Origin: Crassaminicella profunda
GTDB lineage: Bacteria; Bacillota; Clostridia; Peptostreptococcales; Thermotaleaceae
DNA: 64,000 bases
NCBI RefSeq assembly: GCF_019884785.1
Contig: NZ_CP082326.1
Span: 1,543,355 to 1,607,354 of the forward strand
Direction of reading: 5' to 3'
Position 1 is the first letter of the stretch. Every line of letters begins with the position of its first letter. Shown here one piece after another: positions 1 through 50,645 of the stretch. The notes below the pieces were generated by a model. It had not been told where the DNA came from. It ran no database searches and saw only the letters and a list, made by a program, of their open reading frames with translations. A program made the translations under genes and the position numbers.

Positions 1-765
1 GCTCAAGCTACATTAAATAATTATTTTTCTTATTTAAAGGGATTTTTCCAGTTTTGTAAATTACATAAAGATAATGATACAATTGAATTTGATAAAATTC
101 AATATAAGAGGGGTAAATCATCAAATTTTATAGTATATAGTGAAAAAGAAATAAAAGAAATTTTTCAAATCATTAATGAAAAGAATAGAGAATCTTTAAA
201 GTTAAGGGATCGGGTTATGTATAGTTTGTTGTTTTATACTGGTTGTACCCTTAAAGAATTACACTCAATTAATATTTATAGAACTATCAAAGATTTTTAT
301 GATGATGATTTTTATATAATCTTAGACAAAAAGGTGATTGGATTTAGAAATCCTAATCTTAGAGAAATTCCTTTGCCTAATAAGATAATTGAAAATATTA
401 TTATGTATATACAATTCCTTGAAGAAAAATATCATACTACATTACCAAATGGATGTTATTTGTTTGCAACTTATTATGGAGGAAACTTAAAGAGAATTAA
501 ATACTCTTCTTTACAAAGAAGAATGAATGATATTAAGAAAATAAGTAGTTTTAATAATAAGAAATTATCAATAAAAAACACTAGACATACCTTAATAAAG
601 AAATATATTGAAAATGAAGAAAGAGTAGATTTAATTAGTGAGGCATTTGACATTGATATTACATCACTAAAAGTGTATTTTGAGAAAGATTTAAAGAGAG
701 AAGAGGAAATTAATAACATGCTTTTAAAAAGACATCCGTTAAAACATATTGTAGATTTCATGTAG
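1..765 (+). CDS. Tyrosine recombinase-like protein (partial, degenerate catalytic motifs)
   Basis: The reading frame is open from base 1 through a stop at 765, so the N-terminus lies off the left edge; 254 residues are visible. The first ~70 residues look like the helical core-binding (SAM-like) domain of Xer/phage integrases and the rest like the catalytic domain. The box normally reading TG(L)RxxEL is TGCTLKEL, with the catalytic Arg replaced by Thr; HxLRH is KNTRH (first His lost, Arg-His kept); the LGH box is not recognisable, while a candidate nucleophile Tyr (SLKVYF) remains. It could be a divergent integrase of this prophage, or an inactive relic with the real integrase outside the window. 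Family is fairly sure; activity is doubtful. Confidence 0.7.
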   Translation, partial: AQATLNNYFSYLKGFFQFCKLHKDNDTIEFDKIQYKRGKSSNFIVYSEKEIKEIFQIINEKNRESLKLRDRVMYSLLFYTGCTLKELHSINIYRTIKDFYDDDFYIILDKKVIGFRNPNLREIPLPNKIIENIIMYIQFLEEKYHTTLPNGCYLFATYYGGNLKRIKYSSLQRRMNDIKKISSFNNKKLSIKNTRHTLIKKYIENEERVDLISEAFDIDITSLKVYFEKDLKREEEINNMLLKRHPLKHIVDFM

Positions 766-881
766 ATATAAGCTAGCATACACCTTATGGCATTATACAC
801 AAAACTACATAGTATACCATGAATTTAAAATCAATCCAATGCAATACAATGTAGTGAAAACTCAATATTCAGCCTTATAAC

Positions 882-914
882 AAGAATTAGATTTTATCTA
901 GTTCTTATTTTTTA
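882..914 (+). terminator. Intrinsic terminator after the recombinase gene
   Basis: An 11-bp stem (882-892 with 896-906, one G-U pair, 3-nt loop) is followed by a run of T from 908. It lies about 115 bases after the recombinase stop and would end that transcript. Confidence 0.65.
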
Positions 915-1147
915 TACAAAAGATTCTAGGATATCGACTGTAAATGACAAATTTTACAGGGAAATAGGTGTAAAATGGTTTATATTATTACACTATAAAA
1001 GCATTTCGCATAAATATTGTCGAATTTTGGTTACTGGATAGTAATCTAACATGTATTAAAAAAGAGTTTATTATGTTGACAATTAATTACTGGATAAATT
1101 TTTTTATCTAGGTCTAAGCATTTGGAGAGTATGAGGTGAGAATATTT
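915..1147 (+). promoter_or_regulatory. Leader region of the TRADD-N-type membrane gene
   Basis: There is no gene here. The decamer TTACTGGATA occurs at 1031-1040 and 1087-1096, a direct repeat 56 bp apart. A TTGACA hexamer lies at 1076-1081, but no good -10 box is found at 17 bp. A GAGGTGAG ribosome site precedes the ATG at 1148. This is likely the promoter/operator region of the next gene; the repeats could be a regulator site. Confidence 0.35.
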
Positions 1148-1921
1148 ATGGAACAAGTAAAAGAGCAAGACATAGAGCAAGGGATAAAGATTTCAAATAT
1201 TAAGACTACTAATAAGTTATTAGACTTGGAGTATATTGAATCGAGAGTTATAAAGCTTCAAGAAGAGTTAGACTCAGATATAAATACTAGCAGAGGAATA
1301 AGATATTTTTTTTATATTGTAGGTATATTCTGTGCATTGGGATATTTTAAAATAGTTTATATAAATACCTATTTTAATTATATATTAACATTTTTTTCTA
1401 TTATATTTATAATGGCAAGTTTCTCAAATTCAAAACAAAATAAATTAAAGAGAGAAATTGAATTTTTAAATAAAAAGAAGGCAAAGAGCATGGAAAGTAC
1501 TAACCAAGAGGTTCATCCTGAATATTTTGATAGTTTAGTAGGGATTAATATAAGAAATCTTGAAGAATACTACGAATTAGTAAAAAAAAGTAATAAAAGT
1601 TCTTTTCATGTTTCTATAGTCATGAGTCTAATAGGAGTAGGATTAATAACTGGGGGATTGGTTGCGGGGTATTTCAGTGAGAAATTACAAAATATTTCAT
1701 ACATTGTTAGTGCATCAGGTATATTAGTTGAAATAATTACAGGCTTGTTATTTTATCTATATAATAAATCAGTAATTCAACTGAAGGAATATCATGATAG
1801 CTTACTAGATGTACAAAATATACTATTATCGTTTAAATTAATCGATGATATTAAAGAAGAAAAGCATAGATTAGATATTATGAAACATATGATAGAATTT
1901 TTAACGGAAAGACGCAAATGA
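1148..1921 (+). CDS. TRADD-N-associated-type four-helix membrane protein
   Basis: 257 residues from the ATG with the better-spaced ribosome site; a GTG at 1136 is also in frame. Two hydrophobic hairpins are visible at about 51-69/76-91 and 153-176/183-206, separated by a charged helical stretch. The second begins with a conserved-looking NLEEYYELVKKSNKSSF segment before the helix, the pattern I recognise from the TRADD-N-associated transmembrane domain. In other bacteria that domain occurs in predicted immune/conflict proteins as a membrane effector. Here it stands alone between the recombinase and the SIR2/RES cluster and has its own terminator. The domain call is from memory of the family; a defence role is inference. 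Confidence 0.6.
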   Translation: MEQVKEQDIEQGIKISNIKTTNKLLDLEYIESRVIKLQEELDSDINTSRGIRYFFYIVGIFCALGYFKIVYINTYFNYILTFFSIIFIMASFSNSKQNKLKREIEFLNKKKAKSMESTNQEVHPEYFDSLVGINIRNLEEYYELVKKSNKSSFHVSIVMSLIGVGLITGGLVAGYFSEKLQNISYIVSASGILVEIITGLLFYLYNKSVIQLKEYHDSLLDVQNILLSFKLIDDIKEEKHRLDIMKHMIEFLTERRK

Positions 1922-2034
1922 ATTAATCTTGCATGATTTTTACATCATTATGTTAAATAAAAAATAGAATGTTGAAAATGTGATAGGATTAATATAAAAT
2001 CATAACTAAGCAAAAAGTCATCCAATAATTATAG

Positions 2035-2061
2035 AAGGTGATTACTACAATCGCCTTTTTT
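2035..2061 (+). terminator. Intrinsic terminator after the membrane gene
   Basis: An 8-bp stem (AAGGTGAT 2035-2042 with ATCGCCTT 2050-2057, one G-U pair) is followed by TTTT. It lies about 115 bases after the stop of the gene at 1148-1921. From 2062 to 2235 I see no gene. Confidence 0.6.
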
Positions 2062-2235
2062 CATATTTTCAATGTGATACATCACAAAATATAAGCATGT
2101 TGTGTTTATATTGTTTCAAAATAATAGAGCACGCGAGCAGTAAAACAAAAACCCAAGATCAGACATAATCAAATATCCAATCTCAAGAATTTCATCTACT
2201 CCCCCCAAAACCCTTCTACCAACTCCTACATATTA

Positions 2236-2589
2236 CTATCCAATACATTTAAGCGAAATCATAAAACCTAATACAAACCAGAAAATACTATTAACGAATT
2301 TAGGATAGCTATCCTTCAACAGTTTCTTTGATCCAATCCATCCAATAGCTAAAAACATTACTGCTAATAACCCTGGGAAATATCATCCTTCGTTTATGCC
2401 AGAATATATAGGTATACCTAAGGGGATAAAAATACTCTCTCCTAAAACAAACCCATTGGGAAATTCAAAAGAGAATATTAATGAAAAGGGGATTAGTAGT
2501 AATAAAAATATGGATAGTACTTTTATTTTCGTAGTGAAGCTCCTTTTCATATTTTTAAAGGTGATTGATTGAACGATCTCATTTATCAA
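2236..2589 (-). pseudogene. Small membrane protein gene interrupted by an in-frame TGA
   Basis: Read leftward, the frame starts at a TTG (2589) or, more likely, at the ATG at 2548-2550 (MKRSF..., then a hydrophobic helix). It stops at TGA 2383-2385, then continues in the same frame for 48 more codons of hydrophobic, protein-like sequence (YFPGLLAVM..., a third helix near the end) to TAG at 2236-2238. One TGG-to-TGA change would explain this, since the break falls between Gly and Tyr. Intact, it would be a ~105-118 residue protein with about three membrane helices. It starts 5 bases after the RES gene stop, so it belongs to the same leftward unit. The family is not recognised; a membrane partner or immunity protein is only a guess. 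Confidence 0.5.
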
Positions 2590-2594
2590 TTATA

Positions 2595-4064
2595 CTATAA
2601 TTTAGTTGCATTTTGTTTTTTTAAAAACTTTTCTAATTTATAGAAATCAGTATCTTCATATAGCTGCCAGTTAGATGAATCTAAATATATTCGGGCTGAT
2701 TTTCTCTGTTTTTGAAAATATTTTTTAAGAATATCAGATTCTTTTTCTTTATTATTAATTTTTAGTGATGTATTTTCAATGTTGCTTTTATCAAGTGTCT
2801 TTATATTATTAATATTGTATGATTCAGTCAATGAAAAGAATTTAGCAAGTATTGAACAATATTGTTGATTTAAATTGTTATTATCGGGAAATGTAGGGAA
2901 TGCATAATTTGTGTATATTTCTTTATCATTGTATAAACTCATGTTTTTAGAAGGAGTTTTTGATGAGAGATATTTAATCCCTAATATATTATTATTTTGT
3001 AAATCATAATTAAGTCGAATCCACTTCATTAAATACTGTGATATTATATACTCTGGTTTAAATGGGTCTTTCAAATTTTTTACTCTAAAATTAGTAGCAA
3101 TTTTAATTGGGTGAGTAATAATTGAGCAGAGAATATTTCTTATACAATGTTCAATTTCTTTTTTTAAGTCTTTAAATATAGCATTATATTTATAAATATT
3201 CATTTTTTTCGATTTAGATAGTAATAAAAAATATATTAATAAATCTTCAATTGGAATTTTCAATTCTTTACATACTTCATGAATGAAGTTTTGATCATGA
3301 TAATAAAACAATTTTCTAATATCTTCGAGACTTAAATTATTTTTTACAACCATATCATTTATTTTTAAGTTAGTATTCATTTTTATCTTCTGAAAAATAT
3401 GTTTAACTATGTCTTCTTCTTTTAGTGATTCAAAGTATTTTATTACAAATACTGAAATTATTTTTGAAAACCGACCAACGGCATATTCAAAAGTTAATTT
3501 CAAATTATTTGATAAATCAAAAACTTCAATATCCTTATTTGCTACATATTTTGAAATATTAATTTGATCAATATCTGGCTTATTACATTCTTCCCAACAC
3601 ACTTGAATACTTTCGCCTAAATATAATCCTGGAATTCCAGGTTCGCTATATCTGCATGAATTTCTTTTTTCTTTTTCTTTAAATGATCTATGGAACATAT
3701 CTTCTTTCCTATAATTTGTGTTACCTGATCTTAATCTATAAAATATTTTACCTTCTTCTATACGTTCAGCAATTGGTACTTGTTTAGATACATGTGTTTC
3801 TTTCATCATTTTTTCAAACGCTTGATATGAATTTTCAATATTCTCGTTATAATATTTATCTACAGATTCATTTAATCCATCACATATACGGATAATTTTA
3901 TGTTTATTATTTTTAAGAACTTCTGCAAAGGCACCTTTCGTAATTTGATCCAACTCTTGAGTATATTTTTTTAACATTTTTCTTAAAGTTGCTGGAGAAA
4001 ATTTAATATTTTTTTGAATAGGTATATCTACTGAACTATTTAACAAAAATTCTTCTAAATACAT
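2595..4064 (-). CDS. RES-domain protein (489 aa) with extra N- and C-terminal regions
   Basis: The ATG at 4064 follows an AGAGGAAAG ribosome site. Residues 1-105 are helical and unassigned. The RES fold begins at FYRLRS (Arg110, Arg112), with CRYS and GLYLGES near 138-152 and a Glu pair at 158-159. Its second half comes much later (YIISQ 339-343, GIKYLSS 362-368), so ~150 residues of helical insertion split the domain. RES proteins degrade NAD+ (phosphorolysis or hydrolysis) and act as toxins in RES-Xre pairs. No Xre antitoxin sits beside it; instead a second RES gene and a SIR2-like gene lie upstream in the same direction. The domain call is good; a defence role is inferred. Confidence 0.7.
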   Translation of the reverse strand: MYLEEFLLNSSVDIPIQKNIKFSPATLRKMLKKYTQELDQITKGAFAEVLKNNKHKIIRICDGLNESVDKYYNENIENSYQAFEKMMKETHVSKQVPIAERIEEGKIFYRLRSGNTNYRKEDMFHRSFKEKEKRNSCRYSEPGIPGLYLGESIQVCWEECNKPDIDQINISKYVANKDIEVFDLSNNLKLTFEYAVGRFSKIISVFVIKYFESLKEEDIVKHIFQKIKMNTNLKINDMVVKNNLSLEDIRKLFYYHDQNFIHEVCKELKIPIEDLLIYFLLLSKSKKMNIYKYNAIFKDLKKEIEHCIRNILCSIITHPIKIATNFRVKNLKDPFKPEYIISQYLMKWIRLNYDLQNNNILGIKYLSSKTPSKNMSLYNDKEIYTNYAFPTFPDNNNLNQQYCSILAKFFSLTESYNINNIKTLDKSNIENTSLKINNKEKESDILKKYFQKQRKSARIYLDSSNWQLYEDTDFYKLEKFLKKQNATKL

Positions 4065-4438
4065 GTAAATCTTTCCTCTCTGGTGTGATAATTAGTTAAG
4101 GAAACGTATTGTTAGTAATGACCGTATATTACTATAAAACGTAAACCATTAATATTTACATGGACTAATTAAAGTGTTAGTGCGAATAATAAAACCCTTA
4201 ATGATTTACGATTTTTCAACTATGCTTTGAATTATTTTTTTATATGAAATTATCCTCTAAATTGCAAACATGAATTAGCTGTTTCAAGTCAAGTTTTGAC
4301 TAACTTCTTTTAAAACGAAAAACCGTAGTCTTTAATACCCTTTTTAAAATCAAGTAAAATCTAAATCTTATTAAAAATTTGTTGATATCAGATGATGTAT
4401 TCAATTTTTAAATGGTAGAATATCTAAGCTAATATAAA
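4065..4438. other. 374-nt gap between the two RES genes
   Basis: I found no convincing gene on either strand. A short inverted repeat (AGTCAA 4287-4292 with TTGACT 4296-4301) is present. The space could hold a separate promoter for the 489-residue RES gene, but no consensus promoter is clear. Confidence 0.4.
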
Positions 4439-5203
4439 CTATGGCTCAAAGTTATTTAAAACGTAAATGGTATTGTTTTGTTGTGTATATTTAAATTTTA
4501 CTGTTTCAATTTTATATACATCCAATGTCTTTAATTTAATACCTTTTCTATTGAACAATACTACATTTTTGCCTAGTAAGTGTTTATTACTATATCCCGA
4601 TTTATAGAGTATTCCATCAAGCCCTTCATTTTTTACAAGTTCTGCAATAACTTGCGTTATAACATATTCTGCTGTGTCATCAGCTGGAATGACAGGTTTT
4701 GAAAAAGCTGTATTTAGATCACCCCATAAGTTCTCTATGCTGTTTTTTGAAAGTAATTTCATATTTTCCAAGTCTATAGTTAAAGACTTATTCTCATCTT
4801 TGGTAAAATCAACTAATTTTAAGTCTTGACAACATAAAAAAGTTCCACAAGAAACGAATTTCCCAGGCCAAGGTCTGATCTCGTTAATTGCAATATCTTT
4901 ATTTGTAGCTAAATAAACATATGGAATTCCTTTAGGATTTGCCCGACCTTCGAATGCTTTATGTTTTAATGGATACATTCTCTTCTCATTATATGGAGTT
5001 GGTGTATCATTATTTTTATCAAAATCACAACCTATTTGAGCGCGCCATAATTTGGTACCATATGCTAATGTTTTAATCCTTTGGTTCATGAATTTTCGAA
5101 TATCATTTAAAATATTTTTTGTGTCATTATCAAAAATATATCTATTTTTTGTCATCAAGGTTTTATAAAGCTTATGAAATTTTCTCTTATTATATTCAAT
5201 CAC
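4439..5203 (-). CDS. RES-domain protein (254 aa), likely NAD+-degrading
   Basis: The start chosen is the GTG at 5203, because a GGAGGT site lies 9 bases before it; an ATG at 5245 is also in frame but lacks a site. After ~50 helical residues the RES signature appears. In numbering from the 5245 ATG it has LWRAQ (Arg68), GIPYVYLA 106-113, NEIRPWPG 121-128, YVITQVIAEL 194-203 and GLDGILYKS 208-216. This is a compact, complete RES domain, unlike the split one downstream. It follows the SIR2-like gene by 100 bases on the same strand. Known RES enzymes consume NAD+; here two RES proteins and a SIR2-like protein probably form one functional unit. Confidence 0.78.
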   Translation of the reverse strand: MIEYNKRKFHKLYKTLMTKNRYIFDNDTKNILNDIRKFMNQRIKTLAYGTKLWRAQIGCDFDKNNDTPTPYNEKRMYPLKHKAFEGRANPKGIPYVYLATNKDIAINEIRPWPGKFVSCGTFLCCQDLKLVDFTKDENKSLTIDLENMKLLSKNSIENLWGDLNTAFSKPVIPADDTAEYVITQVIAELVKNEGLDGILYKSGYSNKHLLGKNVVLFNRKGIKLKTLDVYKIETVKFKYTQQNNTIYVLNNFEP

Positions 5204-5303
5204 TATCAAAGACCTCCATAATTGTAGTGTCAAGTAACTGAGCATATGCTATCTCAAAATGTTTTGATTTGAGATATTTATGTAGTGTACTATTATGGTT
5301 ATG

Positions 5304-6242
5304 TTAGACTATTTCTTTAGTTTCTATGTTGTTGTATTGTGTATCATAGTCTAACGGTAATTTACTAGTATTTATTCTTTTCTTGATATCTTCTATAACT
5401 GTAGAATAAAATTTATCCCAGCTATTATCTTTTTTATTTATAACTTCTACGTTAAAAGATTCTAAGAGAAGTTGTTTATCCTCATCAACATTACCATAGA
5501 AAATAATCTCATTAGTTATTCTATCTTTTAATTCTTTACTCTTACACATGCGAGCACGCTTGTTAAGAATCCACCACAAATCAATTTCGCTATAATCTAG
5601 ACCAAAACCTAAGATATAAACATTGCTATTAAAGAATAGCTCAACCCATGATATATTATCCCATTCTTCGAGACCCAGTAACTTTTCCTTCATATGCTTT
5701 ACAACCTTTTTTCCAATTCTATAGGTACCTTTTACATATTGATCAATTTTTCCGATAGAACCACAGTAATGATCTAAACCTAACATAATTGATTTTGGGT
5801 TATTTAACTCGCCATGAATATTCCATACTTTGAAAGTTGAATTATTGTCTTTAATATAGCTGTTATTTCTTCGTATACTATATAATTTTTCACTATTATC
5901 TTTATATGGTAGTTCGGAGAACTGTTTTAAGGACACATTAAATGCATAGTCATAATTAGTAGTTAAAAAATTACTAGCAGGCAACTCTCCAATTTTGTAA
6001 TGTAAATCTGATGGTTCAATTTTATTTAACTCTTCCACGATTTTACGTTTAAGTTTTAATTCAGCATCATGAAATAATATAGTATCATTTCTTTTTAAGA
6101 AGATATGCTCATAATTAATTGTATTTGGTAAACGAGAGCTTGAATTTTTATCACCAGATATATTTTTGAGTAACTCTTCCCATGACAAATTGGCACTGTT
6201 TACTCTATTAACTCCATTCCCAAATAACACTGTATTTTCCAC
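5304..6242 (-). CDS. SIR2-like (SIR2_2) domain protein
   Basis: 312 residues from a GTG preceded by GGAAGGAG. Visible SIR2-like motifs, in order: VLFGNGVNR (5-13, nucleotide-binding Gly loop), FLTTNYD (92-98), WNIHGE (140-145, His143 as the likely catalytic base) and YILGFGLDYSEIDLWWIL (209-226). Stand-alone proteins of this type in bacteria are often NAD+ hydrolases in anti-phage systems such as Thoeris, DSR and SIR2-HerA. There is no long sensor domain; the ~85 residues after the last motif are unassigned. It is the first gene of the leftward cluster SIR2-RES-RES-membrane protein. Family is confident; role is inference from context. Confidence 0.8.
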   Translation of the reverse strand: MENTVLFGNGVNRVNSANLSWEELLKNISGDKNSSSRLPNTINYEHIFLKRNDTILFHDAELKLKRKIVEELNKIEPSDLHYKIGELPASNFLTTNYDYAFNVSLKQFSELPYKDNSEKLYSIRRNNSYIKDNNSTFKVWNIHGELNNPKSIMLGLDHYCGSIGKIDQYVKGTYRIGKKVVKHMKEKLLGLEEWDNISWVELFFNSNVYILGFGLDYSEIDLWWILNKRARMCKSKELKDRITNEIIFYGNVDEDKQLLLESFNVEVINKKDNSWDKFYSTVIEDIKKRINTSKLPLDYDTQYNNIETKEIV

Positions 6243-6443
6243 AATATTTCTCCTTCCGTAATTACTTTTTTATATTTCTAAATGAACATTAAGTACCCAA
6301 ATATATGTCTTCTAATTTTAATATTCATGATACTTAGCTATTAAGTGTCCATTTTATATATTTTCATAAAGTGATTGTATATCAAATGCTAACTCTAATT
6401 TCTTTATAATAACAACAAAAGAAAAATATTCCATATACATTCC

Positions 6444-6475
6444 TAAAAAATACTCAAACCCACAGATTTGAGTAT
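6444..6475 (-). terminator. Intrinsic terminator of the repressor transcript
   Basis: A perfect 9-bp stem (ATACTCAAA 6450-6458 with TTTGAGTAT 6467-6475) is followed on the minus strand by six T. It lies 10 bases after the repressor stop, separating that transcript from the SIR2/RES unit. Confidence 0.8.
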
Positions 6476-6485
6476 CAATAATCAT

Positions 6486-6842
6486 TTACTTCTTCTTCAA
6501 AGTCCCATCAGGATTATACTTTTGCTTAATAAATTCAATATACTCCTCAATTTGCTGAATAGCTTCCTTAGGTAACCCATAGTTATCTAGATGATGATAG
6601 GCTTTGGTTTGGATTTTATTTTCATGGCTATGAGCATTTTTTATTTTTGTACGACCAAGAAGATAGTCTACAGAAACGTCAAGAAAGTTAGTTATTTTCT
6701 TCAATGTTTCTTTGTCAGGGAATCTTACATTTGTCTCATATTTTGATACAGCAGAATAAGAAATATTTAATTTATTAGCAAGCTCTTCCCTTGTTATTTT
6801 TTTTTCCTCACGAATTGTTTTAAGTCTCTCTCCAAAATCCAT
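6486..6842 (-). CDS. XRE-family prophage repressor (CI-like)
   Basis: 118 residues from the ATG with an AAAGGGGTG site; an in-frame start at 6905 would add a hydrophobic leader and has no site. Residues 4-60 form a classic helix-turn-helix (LKTIREEKKITREELANKL, then SYSAVSKYE). A short charged tail ends in KQKYNPDGTLKKK. No peptidase domain is present, so it is not a RecA-cleaved repressor. It diverges from the Cro-like gene, and palindromic operators lie between them, the usual arrangement of a lysogeny switch. Confidence 0.85.
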   Translation of the reverse strand: MDFGERLKTIREEKKITREELANKLNISYSAVSKYETNVRFPDKETLKKITNFLDVSVDYLLGRTKIKNAHSHENKIQTKAYHHLDNYGLPKEAIQQIEEYIEFIKQKYNPDGTLKKK

Positions 6843-6921
6843 AAATAAACACCCCTTTAGAATAATTTTAGCACATACTGTCCAAATTAAAAATAATATA
6901 GACAATATGGGTAATTACATG

Positions 6922-6950
6922 TTGACATTGGACAAAATGTCCACTATAAT
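6922..6950 (+). promoter_or_regulatory. Consensus early promoter with embedded operator
   Basis: TTGACA at 6922-6927 and TATAAT at 6945-6950 are separated by exactly 17 bp, a perfect sigma-A promoter firing into the cro-like gene. Its spacer is almost filled by the palindrome at 6929-6943, so repressor binding would block RNA polymerase. Confidence 0.85.
6929..6943. promoter_or_regulatory. Operator 1 (TGGACAAAATGTCCA)
   Basis: Six-base arms TGGACA/TGTCCA flank three A. The site lies between the -35 and -10 boxes of the early promoter. Related sites follow at 6961-6979 and 7197-7211, and a half-site TGTCCA lies at 6879-6884 near the repressor start. Confidence 0.8.
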
Positions 6951-6960
6951 AATATTAAAA

Positions 6961-6979
6961 GTTGGACGAAATGTCCAAC
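6961..6979. promoter_or_regulatory. Operator 2 (GTTGGACGAAATGTCCAAC)
   Basis: Seven-base arms GTTGGAC/GTCCAAC flank GAAAT, centred about 20 bases after the -10 box, over the expected start of transcription. It is the longest copy of the operator motif. Confidence 0.8.
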
Positions 6980-7003
6980 GAGGAAGGTGAGGAGGTGCAT
7001 AAT

Positions 7004-7231
7004 ATGCGCACTATTCTTAAAAAAGCTAGAAAGAAGAATAAGTTAGCAGTATGTAAGATTGCAGAAATGCTGGGGATTTCAAAATCTTTTTATTATAAAA
7101 TTGAAAGCGGAGCTAGAAATCCTAGTATTTTACTTGCTAAAAAGATTGCTGATATTTTTAATATGAAGGTGGATGAAATTTTTTTTGATGAAAATATGGA
7201 CAAAACGTCCAAGAAAGATATTTCAGCTTAA
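7004..7231 (+). CDS. Cro-like XRE-family regulator
   Basis: 75 residues starting at the ATG after GGTGAGGAGGTG. An upstream in-frame TTG at 6962 falls inside operator 2 and is unlikely. The helix-turn-helix covers most of the protein (AEMLGISKSFYYKIESGARN), ending MKVDEIFF as in many small phage XRE proteins. It is the first gene under the early promoter. The third operator copy lies inside its last codons. Confidence 0.8.
   Translation: MRTILKKARKKNKLAVCKIAEMLGISKSFYYKIESGARNPSILLAKKIADIFNMKVDEIFFDENMDKTSKKDISA
7197..7211. promoter_or_regulatory. Operator 3 (TGGACAAAACGTCCA) inside the cro-like gene
   Basis: Five-base arms TGGAC/GTCCA with the same spacing as operator 1, located about 250 bp downstream in the 3' end of the cro-like gene. 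The position would suit DNA looping or a roadblock; a chance match is possible but unlikely given the full agreement. Confidence 0.6.
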
Positions 7232-7276
7232 ACTTAGTTTTCCCACTTTAAACAAAACCATAAGGAGGTGAAACTA

Positions 7277-7438
7277 TTGGCAAGATTACCAATACCGAAG
7301 ATAGTTCAAGTGAATGTTGAGCTAGTTGAAGATGGCGAAGAAAGATGGAATGATTTTAAATCAATACTTAGAAAAGCTATCGATAGAAGGTACATAGCTG
7401 AACAGAAGAGTAAAGGAGAAACCAAGGATACAGAATAG
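7277..7438 (+). CDS. Small early phage protein (53 aa)
   Basis: TTG start 7 bases after a strong TAAGGAGGTG site. The predicted protein begins MARLPIPKIVQVNVEL and has a charged helical second half. Not recognised. It is the second gene of the rightward early operon. Confidence 0.55.
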   Translation: MARLPIPKIVQVNVELVEDGEERWNDFKSILRKAIDRRYIAEQKSKGETKDTE

Positions 7439-7483
7439 TTTATTGCTTAGAAATGTATAAGCCATGTGAAGGGTGGTGTAAAA

Positions 7484-7714
7484 ATGCTGAAAAAGAAATT
7501 TATGAAATATGGATTAATGAAAAAACACATGGAATTAGTTAGAAAAGGAAAATACCAGTTAGCAAGGAAGATTTTGAACGTCTTAAAAAATGAAACGGTG
7601 TATTTAGGGTTATCTGATACCGAATGGGAAACAGAAGAAATATGTGAAGAGATTGGAATGAAAATAAAAATAACTCGAAGAGGGAAGGCGATTGTGTTAA
7701 GTAATCAATTTTGA
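7484..7714 (+). CDS. Small basic early phage protein (76 aa)
   Basis: The ATG at 7484 follows GAAGGGTGGTG; an earlier in-frame start at 7466 is weaker. The N-terminus is very Lys-rich (MLKKKFMKYGLMKKH), followed by an acidic stretch and a short basic end. No family recognised. It lies in the early operon and overlaps the next open frame by a few bases only. Confidence 0.55.
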   Translation: MLKKKFMKYGLMKKHMELVRKGKYQLARKILNVLKNETVYLGLSDTEWETEEICEEIGMKIKITRRGKAIVLSNQF

Positions 7715-7731
7715 AAAGAGGCGAGAACCAA

Positions 7732-7944
7732 ATGTTTAGTACATCAATAGAGGATAGGCTAGTAGCAATTATACAAGAACATACAGATCTTGCAGAAGAA
7801 TATGCAAAATTGCCATTGAATGGTGGAGCTACAGTCGAAGAAGCTGCTCAGATTACAAAGAGAAAAAGTGAAATTAAAAATCGGATTGAAGAGCTAAGAT
7901 CAGAGAGACAGAAATTGTTTGAAAAGTGGAAGGTGGTGAAGTGA
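7732..7944 (+). CDS. Small coiled-coil early phage protein (70 aa)
   Basis: The ATG at 7732 follows AGAGGCGAG. The second half (residues ~35-70) is a charged heptad-like helix (KRKSEIKNRIEELRSERQKL). The stop TGA at 7942-7944 directly abuts the next start. Not recognised. Confidence 0.6.
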   Translation: MFSTSIEDRLVAIIQEHTDLAEEYAKLPLNGGATVEEAAQITKRKSEIKNRIEELRSERQKLFEKWKVVK

Positions 7945-8100
7945 GTGGAAGTTGATAAATACGAAGCAATGACTATATTAGAAGCTCTAGCAACACAAGA
8001 TGAACAATGCAGTAGAGATTGTAATGGGTGCAAATATGAGGAAGTATGCAACAAATTAGGTGAGGAAGGTATCCTAGAAAACTTATTTGGAAGGAGTTGA
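7945..8100 (+). CDS. Small four-cysteine early protein (51 aa)
   Basis: GTG start immediately after the previous stop, with GGTGGTGAAG as ribosome site. The core C-x3-C-x2-C-x5-C (CSRDCNGCKYEEVC) could bind zinc or another metal. Not a family I can name. The tight junction with its neighbour suggests translational coupling. Confidence 0.55.
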   Translation: MEVDKYEAMTILEALATQDEQCSRDCNGCKYEEVCNKLGEEGILENLFGRS

Positions 8101-50124: not shown

Positions 50125-50154
50125 CTCAAAAGTAAGTGTTTTGCATTTTGCTTC

Positions 50155-50175
50155 TGCACCCTTGTCCTTGTGGCC
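50155..50175. other. Candidate attR core at comM
   Basis: comM similarity starts abruptly at CCTTGTCCTTGTGGC (50160-50174), coding PCPCG; the codons before it do not encode the expected comM residues. The core crossover is placed here by homology only. The left copy would be off the window. Confidence 0.55.
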
Positions 50176-50645
50176 ATTATGGGGATTCATTTCATGAATG
50201 TACTTGTACCCCATGGCAAATAAAAAAATATTTATCTAAAATTTCAGGGCCTTTGTTAGATAGAATAGATATGCATATAGAGATTTTTCCAATAAAATAT
50301 GAAGAATTGACAACAGAAAAACAAACAAAATCATCTGCTGATATTAGAAAAGACGTTGAAAGAGCAAGAAAAATTCAACTTGAAAGATACAAAAAGCATC
50401 ATATATTATTTAATTCTCAGTTAAATGGTCAATTGATGAAGAGATATTGTAAACTAGGGAATCAAGAAAAATTATTAATGGAAGAAGCTTTCCATAAATT
50501 AAAATTAAGTGCAAGGGCATATAATAGAACTATAAAATTAAGTAGAACGATAGCAGATTTAGAAGGGACTTCTGACATTGCTACTACGCATATTGCTGAG
50601 GCCATTCAATATAGAAATTTAGATAGAAAATTTTGGGATTCATAG
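50160..50645 (+). pseudogene. comM: comM (yifB), 3' part interrupted by the prophage
   Basis: This is the C-terminal ~160 residues of the Mg-chelatase-like AAA+ protein ComM/YifB. It runs from PCPCGHYGDSFHECTCTPWQ through YLSKISGPLLDRIDMHIEI and KLSARAYNRTIKLSRTIADL to IAEAIQYRNLDRKFW. The first ~350 residues (Walker A and B) are missing. ComM is a branch-migration helicase that promotes integration of incoming DNA during transformation. The 5' part should lie left of the prophage; excision would restore it. No ribosome site precedes the fragment. Confidence 0.85.

What the first reader, a model, noticed from the sequence alone, without database searches (positions are those of the whole stretch)
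2236..6242. Prophage cargo combining one SIR2-like and two distinct RES-domain proteins
Seen: three genes in one direction, a SIR2_2-type protein (TTNYD, NIHGE, GFGLDYSEID), a compact RES protein and a larger RES protein split by a ~150-residue insertion, followed by a small membrane gene. Known: SIR2 and RES families both consume NAD+ in defence or toxin systems. Inference: a composite NAD+-depleting anti-phage or superinfection-exclusion system. I know of no described system with this set, and no Xre antitoxin is next to the RES genes.
Basis: partly seen in the sequence, partly recalled or inferred. Interest (0 to 1): 0.78.

Follow-up and report, generated by a model that had tools for sequence, protein, structure and literature searches.

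The report
Three separate NAD-targeting genes in prophage
A virus dormant in a bacterial chromosome carries three neighbouring genes that look able to consume the cell's NAD; their relatives elsewhere live apart, so this looks like a collection of independent probable anti-virus genes in a known kind of storage spot rather than one new machine.

Summary
The three genes are real: a SIR2-only protein (5304-6242, minus), a compact RES protein (4439-5245, start probably 5203) and a divergent larger RES protein (2595-4064). The "small membrane gene" is a 68-codon ORF cut by an in-frame stop. They lie between the serine-integrase/peptidase end and the repressor of a roughly 59.6-kb prophage, a layout already described as a defence hotspot; the same 13.7-kb stretch holds ABC-3C, AbiJ-like and TRADD-associated 2TM genes. 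The composite-system idea is not supported: 0 of 49 distinct SIR2 relatives have a RES gene in the flanks held; among 368 genomes Pfam RES and SIR2_2 share a contig only here; 0 of 68 larger-RES and 0 of 17 compact-RES viral contigs have this SIR2. Each family has its own habitat: SIR2 without a shared partner; larger RES (phrog_7835, SPbeta YopC family) directly after a P2-type integrase in 55 of 68 viral contigs; compact RES mostly with two other genes. Best reading: independent NAD-directed superinfection-exclusion genes collected in one hotspot; activity is unproven. Leads: the integrase-linked RES family, and SIR2 and RES relatives found beside the same TIR-TPR genes in other Clostridia.

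The parts
5304..6242 (-). SIR2-only protein, 312 aa, GTG start with GGAAGGAG
   Evidence: Pfam SIR2_2 over cut-off; PADLOC ThsA 2.8e-8; AF2 pLDDT 87.9; best PDB folds KomC, DSR2, ThsA; G8, N96, H143 invariant in 36 rows
4439..5245 (-). compact RES protein; ORF 268 aa, probable true start GTG 5203 (254 aa); lacks the N-terminal Zn-ribbon of most relatives aligned
   Evidence: Pfam RES 7.9e-14; R68, R101, Y111, E122, N227 invariant in 11 rows; start from GGAGG and alignment with L157 and L159
2595..4064 (-). larger, divergent RES protein, 489 aa, with about 100 extra residues inside the domain; YopC / phrog_7835 family
   Evidence: phrog_7835 6e-49; R112, H125, R138, Y148, E159, N386 invariant in 36 rows; ParT the best PDB fold, weak
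2383..2589 (-). 68-codon membrane-like ORF (TTG start); its frame goes on to 2236 past an in-frame stop; doubtful gene
4065..4438 (.). 374-nt gap between the RES genes; no ORF over 34 codons, ordinary RNA folding energy, no terminator-like site; whether the larger RES is a separate transcript is open
   Evidence: (z-score 0.00)
2152..2187 (-). terminator-like hairpin downstream of the three genes (pattern match only)
6486..6905 (-). HTH repressor-like gene bounding the cargo
   Evidence: Pfam HTH_3 1.8e-15
6922..6950 (+). 12-of-12 consensus promoter of the divergent early region, among three 16-bp palindromes (6928, 6962, 7196)
1136..1921 (+). 2TM protein of the TRADD-N-associated type, cargo of the same stretch, opposite strand
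   Evidence: Pfam PF20712 2.7e-12
1..765 (+). 3' part of a tyrosine recombinase gene (L002 9788-10765) inside the cargo
   Evidence: Pfam PF00589 5.9e-7 for the whole protein

Best explanation
The stretch is a prophage defence hotspot holding at least three separate single-gene modules whose products are predicted to destroy NAD+: a SIR2 NADase, a compact RES NAD+ phosphorylase and a YopC-type RES protein. In the lysogen they would be made at low level or held inactive; a second phage would trigger one of them, NAD+ would fall (by hydrolysis for SIR2, by phosphorolysis for RES) and the infected cell would stop before releasing phage. They adjoin because hotspots accumulate such genes, not because the proteins work together. 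Shown: gene content, SIR2 fold, conserved residues, hotspot layout, no linkage in the relatives sampled. Inferred: NAD+ consumption, the trigger, the anti-phage effect.
For: No linkage elsewhere: 0 of 49 distinct SIR2 places with RES in the flanks held; one co-located case, the window, in 368 genomes. Separate habitats: larger RES within 60 nt of a P2-type integrase in 57 of 68 viral contigs, 55 of them just downstream (44 different proteins among the 57), and 108 nt after an HTH gene in SPbeta; compact RES behind two conserved genes in 8 of 13 loci and 13 of 17 viral contigs (many near-identical), without them in 3 of 17; SIR2 without a shared partner (largest neighbour cluster 5 of 50 loci). 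Layout: serine integrase and M78-like peptidase at one end, repressor at the other, as in the Bacillus hotspot of PMC9122126 (section 12 read). Other cargo: ABC-3C CTD12 and DUF2326/PDC-M68B, AbiJ_NTD4/PDC-S32, TRADD-N 2TM. SIR2 fold nearest KomC, DSR2, ThsA. G+C 22-29% at window 1-6500 against 31-36% in the phage genes to 14000.
Against: SIR2 and compact RES lie on one strand with about 100 nt between the SIR2 stop and the GTG start, and no terminator-like site lies in the 374-nt gap before the larger RES, so one transcript is possible. The relatives are distant (SIR2 at most 44% identity), so the nearest kin of this locus were not sampled. No activity is shown for the window proteins. Against an anti-phage role of RES: PMC11535050 (passages) finds its NatT homologues not associated with phage genes and no change in susceptibility to over 50 phages; that is another RES subgroup. 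The larger RES model is of middling confidence (pLDDT 70.5) and its ParT match weak.
Confidence: 0.6

Rival explanations
1. SIR2 and compact RES form one two-gene system, for example one part sensing and the other killing, or two NAD-consuming steps; the larger RES is separate.
For: Same strand, about 100 nt apart. In other Clostridia a SIR2 of this family (L137, L142, L146) and a short RES (L034) each lie beside TIR-TPR genes of one family, so the two kinds occur in one context.
Against: 0 of 49 SIR2 places and 0 of 17 compact-RES viral contigs have the other; in the TIR arrays seen they do not co-occur.
Confidence: 0.1
2. Three-gene composite NAD-depleting system.
For: Adjacency and shared strand; no terminator-like site in the gap between the RES genes.
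Against: No second instance was seen: phage records with SIR2 (2), compact RES (2) and larger RES (7) do not overlap; viral and genome contigs none; phylum sample none. Plasmids were not fully tested: of 182 records with compact RES 15 were listed and 4 opened. Each family has its own surroundings elsewhere.
Confidence: 0.06
3. The RES genes are toxins of toxin-antitoxin, persistence or addiction modules, not anti-phage genes.
For: [quoted passage not shown] YopC has an HTH gene 108 nt upstream.
Against: No antitoxin-like gene adjoins either RES gene; in P2-type contigs the gene follows the integrase, the nearest HTH gene being the phage repressor about 1 kb upstream.
Confidence: 0.19
4. Decaying cargo with no present function.
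For: The neighbouring small ORF has an in-frame stop; the compact RES lacks the Zn-ribbon of most relatives aligned.
Against: All three frames are long and open, with plausible ribosome-binding sites and intact invariant residues; short RES forms recur in viral contigs and plasmids.
Confidence: 0.05

Closest known systems
Prophage defence hotspots, incl. the Bacillus one between a regulator and a peptidase next to the integrase (PMC9122126; section 12 read, rest by passages)
   Same: Same order integrase, peptidase, variable cargo, regulator; cargo rich in defence domains
   Different: Different prophage and this gene content
phrog_7835 / SPbeta YopC / int-linked RES of Peduoviridae
   Same: Sequence family of the larger RES (6e-49); phage lysogeny end
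   Different: Not next to the integrase or to an HTH gene here; about 100 extra residues in the domain
RES family NAD+ phosphorylases (ParT, NatT)
   Same: RES domain; Pfam RES met by the compact protein; conserved Arg/Tyr/Glu/Asn set (its catalytic role recalled)
   Different: No antitoxin beside either gene; no enzymatic test
ThsA (Thoeris), KomC (Kongming), DSR2
   Same: SIR2 fold and conserved His/Asn
   Different: 312 aa alone; no SLOG or long C-terminal part; no TIR or HerA neighbour found
Survey of phage NAD+-ADPr systems (PMC9503650, passages)
   Same: Already lists RES toxins and sirtuins in phages and proposes superinfection blocking
   Different: The passages seen do not name this combination or the int-linked RES family

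Membership tests
Thoeris ThsA | SIR2 domain with catalytic His | tested here: met
   PADLOC ThsA 2.8e-8; H143 invariant in 36 rows; ThsA among the top folds
Thoeris ThsA | C-terminal SLOG (or other) ligand-binding domain | tested here: not met
   312 aa, only SIR2_2 over its cut-off; pLDDT under 50 after about residue 295
Thoeris | TIR partner (ThsB) next to it | tested here: not met
   No TIR among the cargo genes scanned; the TIR-TPR protein of L034 finds nothing in this genome (a weak test)
SIR2-HerA | Adjacent HerA ATPase | tested here: not met
   Neighbours are RES and HTH genes
RES-Xre toxin-antitoxin | RES domain over the curated cut-off | tested here: met
   Compact RES 52.4 against 23.2 bits; the larger RES is below (17.4)
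RES-Xre toxin-antitoxin | Adjacent HTH antitoxin with toxin-binding domain | tested here: not met
   None adjoining; nearest HTH is the repressor beyond SIR2
phrog_7835 (YopC family) | Profile match | tested here: met
   6e-49, two stretches
phrog_7835 in Peduoviridae | Gene directly after the integrase | tested here: not met
   The next gene upstream is the compact RES; 55 of 68 viral contigs have the integrase there
Prophage defence hotspot (regulator - cargo - peptidase/integrase) | Order of the bounding genes and defence-type cargo | tested here: met
   Integrase L002 507-2189, M78-like L002 2244-2756 (18.5 bits, below its cut-off of 22), repressor 6486-6905; cargo
sce7726/sce7725/Zn-ribbon RES operon (names recalled) | Two upstream genes and an N-terminal Zn-ribbon | tested here: not met
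   Absent in the window; the two genes are present in 8 of 13 loci and 13 of 17
All three | NAD+ consumption in cells | not testable with these tools
   No enzymatic data

The most novel reading that the evidence does not exclude
RES-domain NAD+ phosphorylases are a phage-borne immunity effector in their own right, kept without a dedicated antitoxin in lysogeny modules (next to the integrase of P2-type phages, and here; beside yopB in SPbeta), and interchangeable with SIR2 NADases, as their place beside the same TIR-TPR genes suggests; the residues inserted in the larger RES would act as a built-in gate in place of an antitoxin.
Probability: 0.27. Interest if true: 0.62.

Novelty: new member of a known kind. 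Interest (0 to 1): 0.36.

Why it matters
The composite itself is probably an accident of a hotspot. What matters is the side result: a RES family placed next to the integrase in 57 of 68 viral contigs found (44 different proteins) and present in SPbeta. A 2024 study (PMC11535050, passages) states that no RES toxin-antitoxin system had been implicated in immunity, so this family gives a clean place to test it in laboratory phages and strains.

Tried and rejected
Single-protein scans of viral contigs found nothing. The family search covered only 16 genomes. PDB sequence searches with the compact RES and with both RES alignments found no RES structure. An RNA antitoxin in the gap: no Rfam match at the gathering threshold in window 1-8000, ordinary folding energy. 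Promoter-like sites in 1900-7300 were fewer than in shuffles (28 against 39.6), so single matches mean little; terminator-like sites were more (6 against 1.4). Repeats: only the operator-like palindromes stood out. A close DNA relative of 2000-7000 in phage records: one 130-bp match beside the repressor, nothing over the three genes. Literature: ten searches of an open-licence library; 'RES domain' with SIR2 and anti-phage gave two papers, one opened (PMC9503650, passages); YopC with SPbeta gave none. Three papers were opened in all, by passages and one section. A scan of viral contigs for the TIR-TPR protein found nothing.

Considered and dropped: calling the SIR2 a ThsA (no SLOG, no TIR partner), and calling the RES genes RES-Xre toxins (no antitoxin beside them).
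Full report
What is there. The three genes exist as described. The SIR2 gene (5304-6242, minus) has a strong ribosome-binding site before its GTG. It passes Pfam SIR2_2, and its model (pLDDT 87.9) is closest to KomC, DSR2 and ThsA. G8, N96 and H143 are invariant in all 36 aligned rows. The compact RES (4439-5245) passes Pfam RES; its start is more likely GTG 5203. The larger RES (2595-4064) misses the Pfam cut-off but matches phrog_7835, as do SPbeta YopC and the RE2010 gene. It keeps the family's invariant residues, and its model finds the RES toxin ParT first, though weakly. It carries about 100 residues more between the two conserved blocks than RE2010 (140 against 40), modelled mostly as helices of low confidence. 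The small membrane gene is doubtful: its frame is stopped after 68 codons.

Where it lies. The window is part of a 4.59-Mb single-contig genome. A serine integrase (L002 507-2189, about 9.5 to 7.8 kb before the window) lies at a comM-like fragment (L002 98-586). A second comM-like part is at window 50136-50645, just before a dprA-like gene (comM and dprA named from recall). The prophage is therefore about 59.6 kb; the exact ends were not found, as the two sides share no long string. Tail-sheath and baseplate-like genes suggest a contractile phage (from recall). Next to the integrase is an M78-like peptidase (below the Pfam cut-off). At the other end are the repressor (6486-6905) and a divergent HTH-like gene (6962-7231, from its sequence) with a 12-of-12 promoter match. 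The 13.7 kb between is the cargo: a CTD12 ABC-3C gene and a DUF2326/PDC-M68B ATPase, an AbiJ_NTD4/PDC-S32 gene, a tyrosine recombinase, a TRADD-N 2TM gene, two genes without a Pfam match and our three genes. Window 1-6500 is 22-29% G+C, the phage genes to 14000 31-36%. The order is that of the Bacillus prophage hotspot in PMC9122126 (section 12 read).

Test of the composite. SIR2 relatives came from phage records, viral contigs, the genome sample and one scan of genome contigs. Of 51 loci (49 distinct places, L014, L027 and L144 being one gene), none has a hit to either of my two RES profiles at E 1e-3 in the flanks held; 37 of 50 ORF rows have at least 3 kb on both sides. A plasmid relative (L178) has none either. 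In 368 genomes of the phylum, 12 have Pfam RES (13 places), 88 have SIR2_2, 6 have both, and only the window has them on one contig; many of these assemblies are in fragments, and this test does not see the larger RES. None of 68 viral contigs with the larger RES carries this SIR2 or a second RES gene, and none of 17 with the compact RES carries this SIR2. No SIR2 relative above 44% identity was found, so very close kin remain unseen, and plasmids were not fully tested (182 compact-RES records, 15 listed, 4 opened).

Own habitats. SIR2: a gene of mostly about 300 codons without a common neighbour, the largest neighbour cluster being 5 of 50 loci. Larger RES: within 60 nt of a P2-type integrase in 57 of 68 viral contigs (55 of them right after it), 4 more within 1.2 kb, 7 not; 44 different proteins among the 57, 54 among the 68; SPbeta-type surroundings in L005, L074, L106 and L111. 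Compact RES: behind two conserved genes in 8 of 13 loci and 13 of 17 viral contigs, many near-identical. Forms of 265-287 aa without the two genes and without the Zn-ribbon are in L157-L159; in L159 an 80-codon ORF overlaps the start. Four plasmid relatives of about 250-285 aa have still other neighbours; the plasmid annotation calls them RES family NAD+ phosphorylase.

A lead. In SIR2 loci L137 and L146 the SIR2 gene lies between two genes for Zn-ribbon-TPR-TIR proteins, and in L142 it directly follows one. In L034 a short RES lies between two genes of the same family; one of these two is 48-67% identical to the members in the SIR2 loci over 296-391 residues. Pfam TIR_2 is over its cut-off in all six such proteins scanned. 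So the two enzyme kinds occur in one context. How many other gene kinds do so was not counted, and no TIR gene was found in the window's cargo.

Mechanism. Most likely each gene acts alone as an NAD-directed abortive or superinfection-exclusion gene of the lysogen. SIR2 would hydrolyse NAD+, as ThsA does (named NAD(+) hydrolase in the PDB). The RES proteins would phosphorolyse it, as stated for NatT in PMC11535050 (passages). That paper says no RES TA system had been implicated in immunity, reports no phage effect for NatT in over 50 phages, and describes an inserted Flap that binds the antitoxin and goes with low toxicity of the toxin alone; a similar role for the insertion here is my inference. 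PMC9503650 (passages) already proposes that phage RES toxins and some sirtuins block superinfection. Triggers and activity are unproven.

Verdict. The more valuable question is the integrase-linked RES family.

Noticed in passing
L004 3855-6723; L007 2127-4957; L160-L172; L033, L035-L038, L040: A recurring three-gene set (nuclease-like gene, matching PADLOC 'cll' in L004; a second gene without a Pfam or PADLOC match in L004; Zn-ribbon RES) in an ICE, viral contigs and Clostridia: 8 of 13 loci and 13 of 17 viral contigs. Looks like a system of its own.
   Followed up: partly
L034 5240-10787; L137 5539-11243; L142 4103-8873; L146 4841-11770: Arrays of Zn-ribbon-TPR-TIR proteins with a SIR2 (three loci) or a short RES (one locus) between or directly after them.
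   Followed up: partly
L044-L111: phrog_7835-type RES gene directly after the integrase in 55 of 68 viral contigs, often overlapping its stop.
   Followed up: yes
L002 4664-7238 and 7583-8479 (upstream of the window): ABC-3C CTD12 plus DUF2326/PDC-M68B pair and an AbiJ_NTD4/PDC-S32 gene in the same cargo stretch.
   Followed up: partly
window 1136-1921: TRADD-N-associated 2TM protein (Pfam PF20712 2.7e-12).
   Followed up: no
window 6922-7211: 12-of-12 promoter match and three copies of a 16-bp palindrome, probable repressor operators.
   Followed up: no
L002 98-586 and window 50136-50645: A comM-like gene split by the prophage, serine integrase beside the left part, a dprA-like gene just downstream (names from recall).
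   Followed up: partly
L177 2520-5780: Gluconobacter plasmid with two RES genes about 1.3 kb apart on opposite strands, both hit by the compact-RES profile, near a nucleotidyltransferase and a patatin-like gene.
   Followed up: partly
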